Assembly: GCF_001244545.1 (NCBI RefSeq)
Contig: NZ_LN852696.1
Span: 372,001 to 436,000 of the forward strand
Reading direction: 5' to 3'
Length of the DNA stretch: 64,000 bases
From: Candidatus Stoquefichus sp. SB1
GTDB lineage: Bacteria; Bacillota_I; Bacilli_A; Erysipelotrichales; Coprobacillaceae
Shown: positions 32,872 to 38,323 of the stretch, in pieces
Numbering within the stretch: the stretch's first letter is position 1
Layout of the letters: each line of letters begins with the position of its first letter
The notes under the pieces: generated by a model
Seen by the model: the letters and a program-made list of their open reading frames with translations, nothing else
Database searches by the model: none
What the model was told of the DNA's origin: nothing
Position numbers and translations under genes: made by a program

Positions 32872-32875
32872 TAAG

Positions 32876-32910
32876 AACAACTCATAGATGCCATTCTATG
32901 AGTTGTTTTC
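32876..32910 (+). terminator. Terminator of the dehydrogenase gene
   Basis: AACAACTCATAGA (32876-32888) pairs with TCTATGAGTTGTT (32895-32907); 13-bp stem, short T run. Confidence 0.8.
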
Positions 32911-32981
32911 AAAATGACAAAATGAATTGATAAAAAAAGAACGAAGGATTACAATTAAATTGAAAGAGAAATATATATTAA

Positions 32982-32999
32982 GCGCAGACACGTGCGCAC
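32982..32999. promoter_or_regulatory. GC-rich dyad upstream of the ABC cassette
   Basis: GCGCA (32982-32986) and TGCGC (32993-32997) are inverted around six bases, and GTGCGCAC (32992-32999) is itself palindromic. The spot stands out in very AT-rich sequence, 18 bases before the first gene of the ABC cassette. Operator or leader hairpin is possible; no function is known. Confidence 0.35.
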
Positions 33000-33016
33000 A
33001 GAAGAGAGATGATATT

Positions 33017-35023
33017 ATGAAAGTTTCTTTATTATATTTCAAACAACAATTAAAATTATTTTTTAAAAATAAGATTTTGTGTGTAATGTATGGATTTATG
33101 TGTTTAAGTACATTGATTGGAATAGGGATTTTCTTTAGCTTTCCAGCATGGGTTTTTTATATTTTTTCACTCATGTCAAGATTTATATTTTATGAATCAC
33201 TTCTTTTTATATTAATGACATATATATTTTTATCAAAAGATCGTAAAAGTCATTTAGATGAAACAATTTCAGTGGCAGGAGATCACCAACAGTATTATTT
33301 TTTTCATTCTATTCTAGTCATGTTATTTTTGTTGGTTATCTATAATTTATTACTCTTATTCCTCTTGTTGATAAGTGCCATGAAATCAAATGAAATTTCA
33401 ATGTTAATAACGTTGTTAAGGAAAGAATATTTATTAAATATATTATTGCCTCAAATTGCAGCGTTTTCTATGACAATCATTATTTCACAAATTCAAAATC
33501 GTACACTTTCTTCAGCAATACTGACAGCTGTTATTATTCTATTAAGTCCATATATGGATTTGTTAGAATGGCGTAGACAGCCATCAATACCTATTGATCA
33601 AATTGTTAATATTATTCATTTACCATTTTCAATATTTCTACAACATTCTAATTGGTCAATTGATGAATTATATGGTTTTCAAAATGAAATCTATAAAATT
33701 TTTGCAATTGCTTTCTGGATAGGTTCAGCAGTAATAAGTTTTTCTCTTAACAAAATGAGAAAGAATAAAAAAATAATTATTGCTGGTAGTTTAGTACTAA
33801 CTTTAATATTTGCAGGAATTTATTTACCAGAAAGTCAATTGAGAGTAGATAATAAATGGGATGGTCATTTGAGCGATGAAAATTATTACCATATGATGGA
33901 TCAAAAAACAATTTATAATAATGAAATGGTTGATTACTGTATTCAAAAATATGATATGAATATCCATATCACAAGACAATTAAATGTAAGTGGAGATTTA
34001 TATTTAACTGCCAAACAGAAAAGTCAGGAATTTATATTAACGCTTTATCATCAATATAAAATAAAGAATTTATCAAGTGATAAAGATTTGACATATACTC
34101 GCGATGGTGACTGGGTTTATATTCATTTTAATGAACCAGTGGAAGTTGCCCGTCTACAAATAACATATTCTGGTTATCATAATATGCTTTATTCAAATTA
34201 TCAAGCAGTCAATCTACCAGGCTTTTTCCCATGGTATCCAATGGCTGGGAAGCGAGAAGTTTATTTTCAAAATAGTGATATTCGTCATAGTAATTATGGT
34301 TTGAATCCTTATAACAAAGTTGAAGAAGCTATGTTTCAGATTGATGTTGATACCATTTATCCAGTTGTTTGTAATTTAGAACAAAAAGACAATCAATTCA
34401 TAGGAAAAAGTGATAGTTTAACTCTCATTGGTGGCAATATAGATTTATATGGGGAAAATCAGTGTCATATTGTCAATTATTTTCCATATGTTATTTCACC
34501 ATATAGTACATTGCAAAGTGAACAAGAATGGTTAGAAAAAGAAATTCAATCTACAAAAGACTCGTTTCAAAAAATATTTGGTATAGAATTAGATGTATTC
34601 GATAATAAGAAAATAATTATTTTACCAAAAAGTATTAGCCAAACACAAGTAATGGGAGGTTATGTAGAATTTAATGATTATATACTTCTTTCAAGCAATC
34701 GTAGTATAAGTAATGAATTTATAAATTATCACTTATATAATCGTTTTGATATTGAACCTGATTTTTTGGATTTATTTATAAGTTCAAGTTATTTACGAGT
34801 GGATACAAAAGAAGAATATGTGCAAGGGATTCTCGATAGTATAGAAAGAAATATTCAAGATTTAAAAATGTATTCAAGTGAAAATAAAGAAGAAACAGAA
34901 TCTATGGTAAAAGCTATGGAAAAGTCAAAAGAACATTTAGAAAAGAAGATTAAAAAAATCGGTTTAGATGAAACGTTAAAAGAGATAGGACAAATGATAT
35001 TAGGTGATCAATATGAATATTGA
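33017..35023 (+). CDS. ABC-2-type permease fused to an extracytoplasmic M1-peptidase-like region (catalytic residues lost)
   Basis: A 668-residue protein. Residues 1-290 hold six to seven membrane helices of ABC-2 permease style. The remainder, outside the membrane, begins with beta-rich sequence like the front of M1 aminopeptidases (…VEVARLQITYSGYHN…GFFPWYPM). Where M1 enzymes have HExxH this protein reads N566-E-F-I-N570, with both His replaced by Asn, and the downstream Glu helix is also not conserved. It is therefore probably a binding or structural domain. ATG 33017 is chosen because the 30 codons upstream overlap the leader; the ribosome site GAGAGATGA is modest. The M1 resemblance is inference from pattern. 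Confidence 0.65.
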   Translation: MKVSLLYFKQQLKLFFKNKILCVMYGFMCLSTLIGIGIFFSFPAWVFYIFSLMSRFIFYESLLFILMTYIFLSKDRKSHLDETISVAGDHQQYYFFHSILVMLFLLVIYNLLLLFLLLISAMKSNEISMLITLLRKEYLLNILLPQIAAFSMTIIISQIQNRTLSSAILTAVIILLSPYMDLLEWRRQPSIPIDQIVNIIHLPFSIFLQHSNWSIDELYGFQNEIYKIFAIAFWIGSAVISFSLNKMRKNKKIIIAGSLVLTLIFAGIYLPESQLRVDNKWDGHLSDENYYHMMDQKTIYNNEMVDYCIQKYDMNIHITRQLNVSGDLYLTAKQKSQEFILTLYHQYKIKNLSSDKDLTYTRDGDWVYIHFNEPVEVARLQITYSGYHNMLYSNYQAVNLPGFFPWYPMAGKREVYFQNSDIRHSNYGLNPYNKVEEAMFQIDVDTIYPVVCNLEQKDNQFIGKSDSLTLIGGNIDLYGENQCHIVNYFPYVISPYSTLQSEQEWLEKEIQSTKDSFQKIFGIELDVFDNKKIIILPKSISQTQVMGGYVEFNDYILLSSNRSISNEFINYHLYNRFDIEPDFLDLFISSSYLRVDTKEEYVQGILDSIERNIQDLKMYSSENKEETESMVKAMEKSKEHLEKKIKKIGLDETLKEIGQMILGDQYEY

Positions 35024-35855
35024 AATAAAGGACTTGGAAAAATTTTACAGAAAGAAAAAAGCAATAAATGGAATAAATTGTTTATTAAAACCTCATATAT
35101 ATGGTTTGATTGGACCAAATGGTAGTGGGAAAACAACGCTTATTCGTTGTCTTTTACAATTAACTTATTATCAGAAAGGAAGTATTCATTTTACTAATGA
35201 AGAAACAGAAATTTCATTTAAAGAACTCCAAATTGGTTATTTACCACAAACATTTGATACATTTAAAGAATTATCTGTATATGAACAATTAGAATATTTT
35301 CTTGTTTTAAAAAATACTAAATTAGATCAAATTGAAGAAGAAATTGATCGTGTTTTACAAATTGTGAATTTACAAGATGTAAAAAAAGACAAAACAAAGA
35401 ATTTATCTGGTGGAATGATTAGAAGATTAGGAATTGCTCAAGCGTTATTAGGAGAACCTGATATCCTTATTTTTGATGAACCGACAGTAGGACTTGACCC
35501 TGATGAAAGATTTAGGTTTAAAGAGATAATGCGTAGTTTAAAGATGAATATACCTGTTATTTTATCCACACATATTATTGAAGATGTTTCTTCTATCTGT
35601 GATCATGTTATTTTTATGAAAGAGGGACAAATTAAATATCTTGGGAGTATTGAAGATTTATTAGATCAAATAGATGGTTATATCTATAGGTGCCCGATTG
35701 AGTTATTGGATGATGTAAAAGAGGAAGTTATTCATATGAGCGAAACGGCTAATGATATTCGTTTTATATCAATGAGTCCTCTGAATTATCCTTTCCTTAA
35801 AAGAGAAAATCCAACAATTGAAGACGCTTATCAATTTATAAATCATCAAAAATGA
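35013..35855 (+). CDS. ABC transporter ATP-binding protein
   Basis: A 280-residue ATPase with Walker A GPNGSGKTT, Q-loop LPQ, signature NLSGGMIRRLG, Walker B DILIFDEPTVGLD and the switch His in LSTHIIEDV, so it should be fully active. AGGTGA just before ATG 35013 is preferred over GTG 35004. It overlaps the permease genes on both sides (11 and 4 bases). Nearest in style to bacteriocin or antimicrobial-peptide export/immunity ATPases of the ABC-2 class, but the cargo is unknown. Confidence 0.92.
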   Translation: MNIEIKDLEKFYRKKKAINGINCLLKPHIYGLIGPNGSGKTTLIRCLLQLTYYQKGSIHFTNEETEISFKELQIGYLPQTFDTFKELSVYEQLEYFLVLKNTKLDQIEEEIDRVLQIVNLQDVKKDKTKNLSGGMIRRLGIAQALLGEPDILIFDEPTVGLDPDERFRFKEIMRSLKMNIPVILSTHIIEDVSSICDHVIFMKEGQIKYLGSIEDLLDQIDGYIYRCPIELLDDVKEEVIHMSETANDIRFISMSPLNYPFLKRENPTIEDAYQFINHQK

Positions 35856-36472
35856 AATCATTATATAAACTCAATTGGTTAAATATTAAAAACAATAGAT
35901 ATATTCTTTTGGCATTATTATTGATTATTTATGGATTTGTTTTGCCTATTATTTTATCTTATCAGTCTGCCCAAGAAGATATGGCATACATATGGTTTAT
36001 GTATTTGCAAAAAATGTTGTTTATTCCTTTAATTATTATGGTGGGGTATTTATATAAGCCATATGTTGAAATAGAATATGTAGAAGTTATTCAATCTATT
36101 CATAAAAGACATGTTTTAAGTTATATTTTTGATGATATGTGTTTGGTTCAATTGTTTATGTTACCATTTTATTGTATTCTTATTTTTAATGATTATCAGA
36201 TAATTAGGTATATATTTATTATTATTTTGCAATTTTGTGTCATAATGAGTGCATATCAAATGATTTCATCATTTACACACTCAACAACTGTTTCACTTGG
36301 TTTAATACTTTGTTATATATTACTTTTTTCACTGGCTTTAAATGATGCAACTATTGGCAATATATTTATAAATGGACCAATTGAATATCTTCAAAGAAGT
36401 TACTTTATAATTTGCTTAATGATTATAATAGTGAGTTTTGTAGTGAGTTATGTTATGCAAAAGTATCGTTAG
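35852..36472 (+). CDS. ABC transporter permease, small ABC-2-like membrane subunit
   Basis: A 206-residue hydrophobic protein with six predicted helices (about 17-37, 48-68, 88-112, 119-137, 145-165, 180-200). The start overlaps the ATPase stop (ATGA). I do not recognise a specific family; its position and topology suggest the second membrane half of the transporter. It is 15 bases ahead of a small secreted protein gene. Confidence 0.7.
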   Translation: MKSLYKLNWLNIKNNRYILLALLLIIYGFVLPIILSYQSAQEDMAYIWFMYLQKMLFIPLIIMVGYLYKPYVEIEYVEVIQSIHKRHVLSYIFDDMCLVQLFMLPFYCILIFNDYQIIRYIFIIILQFCVIMSAYQMISSFTHSTTVSLGLILCYILLFSLALNDATIGNIFINGPIEYLQRSYFIICLMIIIVSFVVSYVMQKYR

Positions 36473-36487
36473 TATGGAGCGAAAAAT

Positions 36488-36868
36488 ATGAAAGTTAAAT
36501 TATTACGAATTTTTGTTGTTTTGTCTGTTGTAAGTTTATTTATAGTTGGTGTTTATGCAGCTAACTCACCTAGTAGTTGTACATTGAATAAAGGTGAAAG
36601 TTCAAAAGAAACTAATGCTGTTGGTGTTTCTAAAAGTGCGGACTGGATGGCAAAGGGATATTCTGATTCTACATATGGAAGTTATGTAGATATTTATGCA
36701 GCATGGACAGGATGGCCTTATACTAAAGAGTATGCTGGTAGTGTTTTTGCAAATGGAATTTTAGAATATAGAGAAACCCAAAGTAAAGATTCTGTTTTCT
36801 ATTTAAAATTAAGACCAATGAATCCAAGTAAACAGTCACATAGTTATGGAACGATTAAAGCAATTTAA
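36488..36868 (+). CDS. Small secreted protein of the ABC cassette, unknown function
   Basis: A 126-residue precursor with a clear signal peptide (about 1-24, MKVKLLRIFVVLSVVSLF… cleavage near VYAA-N). The mature chain has about 100 residues, is rich in Ser, Tyr and Gly, and has one cysteine near its start (SSCTLNKGESS). I see no known domain. It is encoded directly behind two permeases and an ATPase and ahead of a strong terminator, the place where bacteriocins, their immunity proteins or peptide substrates are often found. That role is only a guess. Confidence 0.65.
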   Translation: MKVKLLRIFVVLSVVSLFIVGVYAANSPSSCTLNKGESSKETNAVGVSKSADWMAKGYSDSTYGSYVDIYAAWTGWPYTKEYAGSVFANGILEYRETQSKDSVFYLKLRPMNPSKQSHSYGTIKAI

Positions 36869-36912
36869 TATTTCATAATATTATATAACTAACGATACTT
36901 TTTATAGATACT

Positions 36913-36945
36913 AAAAGACTGAATCACTAAATTCAGTCTTTTCAA
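36913..36945 (+). terminator. Terminator of the ABC cassette
   Basis: AAAAGACTGAAT (36913-36924) pairs with ATTCAGTCTTTT (36931-36942); 12-bp stem with A and T flanks. Confidence 0.85.
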
Positions 36946-37626
36946 GGTATGTCGCATATAGCATATTGCTAGACGGAGAAAGTTCACTGTGGAGGTTTTG
37001 CACTACTAATCACTAGCCATGATGAAAATGATATTATGTTGTAAAAGTTTATTCTAGGTATTTTGCATAAGTCATAGTAATAATGATAATAGCTATAATG
37101 GCTATCAAATGAAAGACGGAGCATAGGGAATTGAGATAGAAAAGAAAAATACTCAAGATATAATTAGATACTGTCAACTATTACTAGGTTTACTCTATGA
37201 AAATAGTTATAGAATATGAAAATAATAAAGAGCCTTAAGAAAAAATATCAAAGAGAAATAGAGAAAAATCAAGTTAACAGTTAGTATATAAATTTCCAAA
37301 AACTAGGAATAAACAAATCCAAAGTATGAGAATCGACAATGAAAATAATATTAAAAAAAGGGATAAAAAGCAATCCCTCAAAATCTTTATAGATAAAATA
37401 AATGAATCCACAACTTATTATGAAGGGAATCTCTAACCCCAAACTATTTTATATACCCAATAAAACTATTTATTTAAGAGTAGAATTGAAGTTTCAGTGT
37501 TTTTATAAATTTTTGACAGTAAATGACTTAAAAAATTTTTTTACTCAATAATAGATGATGAAAAGGATAAGGTTTTAAAGCAAATAGGCTTTACTAATTA
37601 TTTAAGAAAATATTTTTCGTTAATAA
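36946..37626. other. Gene-free stretch of about 680 bases
   Basis: No reading frame of 60 codons exists on either strand and there is no tRNA-like or repeat structure that I can recognise. Many short frames are broken by stops, which is compatible with a decayed gene. It lies between two convergent units. The last part, before the DUF6120 stop codon, is very AT-rich. Confidence 0.5.
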
Positions 37627-38031
37627 TTATTCATCTATATGATCCCCAAAATCTTCAATAATAGTTTCTTCATATTGAATTTGACTATCTTTAAAATCAT
37701 GGAATGCACAATAAAAGGTATATATAACATAAGTTGATACAGCTAAGAAAACTGTAATAAAAATAATCATAGCACATTTGATAATTTTTCTAGATTTCAT
37801 ATGATTAATGATAAATTCACTTTCAAAATGCTCATAATATGCACAAACAATATCTAGTGGTTTTCCATAGTGTTCTATATAATCATGATATTGATATTCG
37901 GGATGTTGTTTTTCAAAATCATCTAAATCCTTTTTGAGGAGTTTGAAAAATCTTTTTTCTTGCTGAGAGTGAGTGGGGAAACTACGATAAATACTTTTAT
38001 AGTATTGTTTTGCTGCTTTATTTGATATCAT
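37627..38031 (-). CDS. DUF6120-like small membrane protein paired with PadR regulator
   Basis: A 134-residue protein with a helical N-terminal half (YYKSIYRSFPTHSQQEKRFFKLLKKDLDDFE, split over two helices) that resembles the HAAS/DUF1700 fold. One membrane helix (about 85-106) and an acidic tail follow. Such genes usually sit behind a PadR-family regulator, as here, where they overlap by 14 bases. The function is thought to be in membrane-linked signalling but is not defined. Confidence 0.7.
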   Translation of the reverse strand: MISNKAAKQYYKSIYRSFPTHSQQEKRFFKLLKKDLDDFEKQHPEYQYHDYIEHYGKPLDIVCAYYEHFESEFIINHMKSRKIIKCAMIIFITVFLAVSTYVIYTFYCAFHDFKDSQIQYEETIIEDFGDHIDE

Positions 38032-38323
38032 TTAATATATTCTCAATAGCATCTGACATATCATAATAGGATTTTTTTAATGTTTCTAAACGTGTTAATC
38101 CTGCATGTTCAATATGATAGATAACCTTTTCTTTCTTATTATATTGTGAAATTAGGTGAGATTCTAAAAAGAAGTATAGTGATGTCATCACTACTCCTTG
38201 TTTTAATTGAATAACCTTTGAAGTGTATAATAGTTTTGTTAATTCTTCACTTGAATAATCATGTTGTTGTAAAAGGGAAAGCAACAACATTTCAGTTTTG
38301 TAAAATCGATCATTATTTATCAT
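38018..38323 (-). CDS. PadR family transcriptional regulator
   Basis: A 101-residue winged-helix protein: FYKTEMLLLSLLQQHDYSSEELTKLL forms the first helices, and YFFLESHLISQYNKKEKVIYHIEHAGLTRLETLKKSY gives the wing (parts shown). The typical PadR ending YYDMSDAIENIL is present. AAGGAGT precedes its ATG. It forms a two-gene unit with the DUF6120-like gene and probably represses its own promoter. Confidence 0.82.
   Translation of the reverse strand: MINNDRFYKTEMLLLSLLQQHDYSSEELTKLLYTSKVIQLKQGVVMTSLYFFLESHLISQYNKKEKVIYHIEHAGLTRLETLKKSYYDMSDAIENILNDIK

What the first reader, a model, noticed from the sequence alone, without database searches (positions are those of the whole stretch)
33017..36868. 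ABC cassette with a pseudo-peptidase permease and a small secreted protein
Seen: large permease with an external domain in which the HExxH position reads NEFIN, active ATPase, second permease, then a 126-residue precursor with signal peptide, all overlapping or spaced by 15 bases and ended by one terminator. Inference: the dead peptidase domain may capture a peptide or the secreted protein; the whole could be an export, immunity or signalling system.
Basis: partly seen in the sequence, partly recalled or inferred. Interest (0 to 1): 0.7.

Follow-up and report, generated by a model that had tools for sequence, protein, structure and literature searches.

The report
Secreted β-protein with dead-peptidase ABC transporter
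A gut bacterium carries a mobile-looking four-gene set that pairs a small secreted all-β protein with an ABC transporter wearing a dead aminopeptidase on the cell surface; the pattern recurs in other Firmicutes and looks like an undescribed toxin-and-self-protection system, though no activity has been tested.

Summary
At 33017-36868 four genes run head to tail: permease A (668 aa), an intact ABC ATPase, permease B (206 aa) and a 126-aa protein with a clear Sec signal peptide, followed by a hairpin terminator. No HExxH occurs in any of 18 relatives, so the domain is ancestrally dead. The small protein models confidently as a β-sandwich. No Pfam or NCBIfam family covers permease A, permease B or the small protein. 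Relatives in Erysipelotrichales, Lachnospiraceae, Bacillaceae and Paenibacillaceae keep the transporter; at least 14 loci also carry a secreted protein of 121-154 aa next to or inside it. In one locus the small gene has decayed while the transporter is intact. A sister genome has a clean empty site. Several relatives lie beside Agr/LytTR or phospholipase-A2-like genes. Best reading: a β-sandwich bacteriocin-like protein with dedicated ABC immunity, analogous to lactococcin 972 but not a member of it. Function is inferred, not shown.

The parts
33017..35023 (+). Permease A, 668 aa: NosY-like ABC-2 membrane domain (7 TM) plus extracytoplasmic M1-like pseudo-peptidase
   Evidence: no Pfam/NCBIfam match
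33020..33820 (+). Membrane domain, residues 2-268 (matches NosY over 2-246, Z 15.2)
33902..35020 (+). M1-aminopeptidase-like external domain, residues 296-668
34712..34726 (+). NEFIN (566-570) where an HExxH zinc motif would be expected; HExxH absent in all 18 relatives aligned
35013..35855 (+). ABC ATPase, 280 aa, Walker A/signature/Walker B/H-loop intact
35852..36472 (+). Permease B, 206 aa, no family match, second membrane subunit
   Evidence: conserved in order in relatives
36488..36868 (+). Small secreted protein, 126 aa (about 24-aa signal peptide; 102-aa mature beta-sandwich, 11.2 kDa, pI 8.7)
36913..36942 (+). Terminator-like hairpin ending the cassette
   Evidence: z -4.7
32872..37623 (.). 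Stretch absent from the sister genome G001 (about 4.75 kb; 36 bp there instead), GC 25-28% against about 30-36% in most of the flanks

Best explanation
A bacteriocin-like toxin/immunity cassette. The small gene makes a Sec-secreted beta-sandwich protein that acts on neighbouring cells at or near the cell surface. Permease A, the ATPase and permease B form a type V (NosY/ABC-2-like) transporter whose external dead M1 domain binds the mature protein, or its complex with its membrane target, and uses ATP to clear it, giving self-immunity. Shown: gene order, intact ATPase motifs, M1 fold without the zinc motif (predicted structure), beta-sandwich fold with signal peptide (predicted structure), recurrent linkage, an empty site in a sister genome, and a decayed small gene beside an intact transporter. 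Inferred: toxicity, the target, recognition of the small protein by the dead peptidase, and immunity.
For: 1) Linkage: small secreted genes sit at or inside this transporter in the window, L030 (two copies), L038, L042, L034, L047 (cut by contig end), L049, L051, L004, L005, L073, L084, L086 and L087. In 29 loci, 11 such ORFs lie at the cassette edges against 4 elsewhere (binomial p about 1e-6 on flank length, crude ORF test). 2) One-way association: in 316 genomes of the order, the clear small-protein hits (E<1e-30) all lie at a cassette, while several cassettes lack the gene. In L035 the small gene is a deletion remnant and the transporter is intact. 3) Variable presence: clean empty site in a same-genus genome, low GC; many relatives are on plasmids. 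4) Company of antagonism-type genes: AgrB and a LytTR regulator beside L030/L021, LytTR near L027; weakly matching phospholipase-A2-like proteins beside four plasmid copies. 5) The same genome holds a genuine lactococcin-972 locus with its own immunity-type ABC genes, so the design of secreted beta-sandwich plus ABC exists in this organism. Lactococcin-972-like proteins are Sec-secreted beta-sandwiches with adjacent predicted immunity/transport genes (PMC11796350). 6) The nearest ATPase model is the lantibiotic-protection subfamily, below cut-off.
Against: No activity data exist. Only the window, L030 and L038 small proteins are demonstrably homologous; the others share size, signal peptide and layout but mostly not significant sequence. 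Many transporters have no small gene, so the transporter may have a broader role. The nearest folds of the small protein (XepA N-terminal domain Z 9.4, PirA 9.0, GOLD domains about 8) are generic beta-sandwiches. ATPase subfamily scores are all far below cut-off.
Confidence: 0.5

Rival explanations
1. The small protein is an extracellular partner or sensor subunit of the transporter (as NosD works with NosFY), and the complex exports or clears some other compound such as a lipid, a peptide or an outside antimicrobial.
For: Membrane domain matches NosY; the transporter often occurs without the small gene, so it has a use of its own; fusion of a binding-type domain suggests a ligand.
Against: A subunit needed for transport should not be missing in so many intact cassettes, nor be doubled and move between upstream, downstream and internal positions.
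Confidence: 0.22
2. The transporter exports or helps release the small protein, which acts as a signal or surface protein.
For: Tight operon in the window and in L042, small gene 15 bp and about 10 bp after permease B.
Against: A full Sec signal peptide makes a dedicated exporter unnecessary; ABC-2 transporters of this type are not known to export 11-kDa Sec substrates (own knowledge).
Confidence: 0.12
3. The transporter is an ordinary antimicrobial-resistance or stress ABC system, and small secreted genes gather beside it because both ride on mobile islands.
For: Island-like empty site; plasmid locations; small proteins of different loci often not recognisably homologous.
Against: Edge enrichment, same size class and design, and presence across both halves of the permease tree.
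Confidence: 0.14

Closest known systems
Lactococcin 972 / streptococcin loci (PF09683, TIGR01653 with TIGR01654/DUF1430 and an ABC ATPase)
   Same: Sec-secreted small beta-sandwich protein beside dedicated membrane and ATPase genes; a true copy exists in this same genome
   Different: Window protein has no PF09683/TIGR01653 match, is larger (102 aa mature), and its transporter is ABC-2/NosY-type with an M1-like domain, not the FtsX/DUF1430 type
NosDFY (type V ABC transporter)
   Same: Membrane domain of permease A matches NosY at Z 15.2 over 231 residues
   Different: Extra TM helix and fused pseudo-M1 domain; second, different permease; no NosD gene
M1 aminopeptidases (DrM1 6a8z, LTA4H, ERAP1, PepN)
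   Same: Residues 296-668 share the fold (Foldseek E about 1e-8, Z about 15)
   Different: No HExxH in any of 18 relatives; membrane-tethered on an ABC permease; no detectable sequence match
XepA / YomS prophage lytic-cassette proteins
   Same: Best beta-sandwich match for the small protein, Z 9.4 over 96 residues; full-length XepA is cytotoxic (PMC6834076)
   Different: 10% identity, only one domain, Sec signal present; the match is only slightly above generic beta-sandwiches
Lantibiotic-protection ABC transporters (TIGR03740 type)
   Same: Best-scoring curated ATPase model (154.8 bits)
   Different: Far under the cut-off of 309.75; permeases unmatched by family search

Membership tests
Lactococcin 972 family bacteriocin | Match to PF09683 / TIGR01653 | tested here: not met
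   No match at E up to 1 for the window protein; the family model finds a different locus in this genome
Lactococcin 972 family bacteriocin | Sec-secreted beta-sandwich | tested here: met
   Signal peptide in sequence; beta-sandwich model, mature pLDDT mostly above 90
Lactococcin 972 family bacteriocin | Adjacent DUF1430/TIGR01654 FtsX-type membrane protein | tested here: not met
   Permease A has no such match and folds as NosY plus M1
Lactococcin 972 family bacteriocin | Antibacterial activity, lipid II binding | not testable with these tools
   needs purified protein
M1 aminopeptidase | M1 fold | tested here: met
   predicted structure
M1 aminopeptidase | HExxH-X18-E zinc site | tested here: not met
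   NEFIN, then S at the +18 position; no HExxH in 18 relatives
ABC transporter (ABC-2 / type V) | NosY-like membrane domain with intact ATPase motifs | tested here: met
Bacteriocin/immunity pair | Toxicity of the small protein and protection by the transporter | not testable with these tools
   genetic and killing assays needed
Anti-phage defence system (PADLOC) | Match of specific components | tested here: not met
   Only generic ATPase matches; permeases and small protein none

The most novel reading that the evidence does not exclude
A previously undescribed, Firmicutes-wide class of interbacterial toxin-immunity systems: fast-diverging Sec-secreted beta-sandwich toxins, each guarded by an ABC transporter that has turned a dead M1 aminopeptidase into a surface receptor for toxin capture and removal.
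Probability: 0.38. Interest if true: 0.8.

Novelty: new variant of a known kind. Interest (0 to 1): 0.62.

Why it matters
If true, it adds a second, unrelated design of β-sandwich bacteriocin with ABC immunity beside lactococcin 972, gives a clear role for a pseudo-peptidase as a receptor in an ABC transporter, and marks a family of secreted proteins in gut and soil Firmicutes that current family libraries do not see. The two-copy, empty-site and decayed-gene cases make it directly testable.

Tried and rejected
Lactococcin-972 membership: no profile match, different transporter. Phage origin: no permease relatives in viral contigs or phage records; PHROGs only chance-level. Anti-phage defence: only generic ATPase matches. 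Solved relatives by sequence: none for the small protein, PmtD only at E 0.24 for the membrane domain. Direct profile alignment of the external domain to a Firmicute M1 enzyme gave nothing, so the M1 link rests on structure prediction. Homology of all small proteins: core group clear (Z 16-51), others mostly within noise, L005-L073 Z 11.3; global profile comparison core vs Bacillales P 0.013 for one comparison, suggestive only. RNA families and tRNAs near the cassette: none. First pattern scan with the small protein alone found nothing. Lactococcin 972's structure is not among the small protein's fold matches; that is inconclusive. The ATPase identities for the window are invalid (wrong start frame in my script) and are not used. 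Literature searches for an ABC permease with an M1 pseudo-peptidase found no paper in the library.

Full report
The cassette. Searches confirm four genes on the plus strand: permease A 33017-35023, ATPase 35013-35855, permease B 35852-36472 and a small gene 36488-36868. The first three overlap by 11 and 4 bases and the last follows after 15. A hairpin at 36913-36942 follows. The ATPase has all its motifs. Pfam and NCBIfam know the ATPase but not the two permeases or the small protein.

Permease A. With 18 relatives aligned, the model has mean pLDDT 80.8 and pTM 0.81. Foldseek ranks M1 enzymes first (E about 1e-9 to 1e-8). VIA-align gives Z about 15 for residues 296-668 against many M1 enzymes, and Z 15.2 for residues 2-246 against NosY. 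Seven membrane helices put the M1-like domain outside (inference from the model). NEFIN is at 566-570; none of 18 relatives has HExxH anywhere, so loss of the zinc motif is old and not a quirk of this gene. The exact pairing NEFIN/HExxH is inferred from fold order.

The small protein. After a Sec signal of about 24 residues, the mature 102 residues model as a β-sandwich, pLDDT mostly above 90. Nearest solved folds are the XepA N-terminal domain (Z 9.4), PirA (9.0) and GOLD domains (about 8). These are common β-sandwich shapes and say little of function. XepA is described as C2-like and cytotoxic only at full length (PMC6834076).

Relatives. A whole-genome comparison found the small protein in one other genome of the family, twice, on both sides of the same transporter (L021/L030). 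Permease A relatives were found in 8 of 316 genomes of the order, in 22 contigs of GTDB species including Lachnospiraceae, Bacillales and Paenibacillaceae, and on plasmids of Priestia, Geobacillus, Halobacillus, Parageobacillus and Planococcus. Reading the neighbourhoods gives secreted proteins of 121-154 aa next to or inside the cassette: downstream in the window and L042; upstream in L038, L034, L049, L051, L004, L005, L084, L086 and, cut by the contig end, L047; both sides in L030; between permease A and ATPase in L073; two divergently oriented copies upstream in L087. Several cassettes have none (for example L031, L033, L041, L044, L045, L048, L050, L074, L085). A crude ORF test puts 11 such genes at cassette edges and 4 elsewhere. 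On the permease tree both states are scattered over both halves (L047 counted there as lacking the gene), so linkage is either old with repeated loss or repeatedly gained.

Sequence kinship of the small proteins. The window, L030a, L030b and L038 proteins are clearly one family (Z 16.6-51; W[TS]GWPY shared). Beyond these, pairwise scores are mostly noise except L005-L073 (11.3) and weak links (L049-L051 5.4, L034-window 4.4); L047 matches L049 over 22 residues at E 0.002. Whether all belong to one fold family is open. Between the window and L038 the small protein is more alike (40%) than the external domain (32%) or permease B (24%).

Mobility and decay. The sister genome G001 has both flanks (87% and 74% identity) joined by about 36 bp; the window has about 4.75 kb there with lower GC. 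In L035 only two ends of a small gene like that of L034 remain, beside an intact permease.

Company. L021 holds AgrB and a LytTR regulator near the cassette, L027 a LytTR regulator. Four plasmid copies sit near proteins with a phospholipase-A2-like CCxxHDxCY stretch, weakly matched in Pfam, all below cut-off. Elsewhere in the window's own genome is a true lactococcin-972 locus with LytTR, histidine kinase, TIGR01654-like protein and ATPase. In lactococcin-972-like loci the bacteriocin is thought to be Sec-secreted and forms a β-sandwich, with adjacent genes predicted, not proven, to give immunity and transport (PMC11796350).

Mechanism. Most likely the small protein is a bacteriocin-like toxin and the transporter its immunity, with the dead peptidase as receptor. 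One-way association, gene doubling, positional freedom, decay beside an intact transporter, empty site and neighbours all fit; none proves it. Rivals are a transporter subunit or ligand role, export, or chance companionship on islands.

Verdict. Observation confirmed, structural guess supported by prediction, function partly supported. New variant of a known kind, at 0.5 confidence for the toxin/immunity reading.

Noticed in passing
G000 contig C5 about 704327-709270 (L070 2328-7271): A separate, genuine lactococcin-972-type locus in the same genome: LytTR regulator, GHKL kinase, PF09683 peptide of 85 aa, TIGR01654-like membrane protein and ATPase.
   Followed up: partly
L004 4343-5098, L073 7428-8186, L084 7214-7954, L086 6745-7524: Phospholipase-A2-like proteins with a CCxxHDxCY stretch beside plasmid copies of the cassette; sigma factor, YvrJ and S8 peptidase genes near three of them. 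Recalls megacin loci (memory, not tested).
   Followed up: partly
L033/L023 87-4296: Two permease A paralogues in tandem with one ATPase and one permease B.
   Followed up: no
L024 2775-6210: A copy of the permease region broken by stop codons in genome G028.
   Followed up: no
window 36950-37620: About 670 bases without a convincing gene between the cassette and the next gene, single copy in the genome and inside the stretch missing from G001.
   Followed up: partly
window 37627-38323: DUF6120 membrane protein and a small PadR-like gene downstream, conserved in the sister genome and so not part of the island.
   Followed up: no
L035 5665-5958: Remnant of a small secreted gene (internal deletion) upstream of an intact transporter.
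   Followed up: yes
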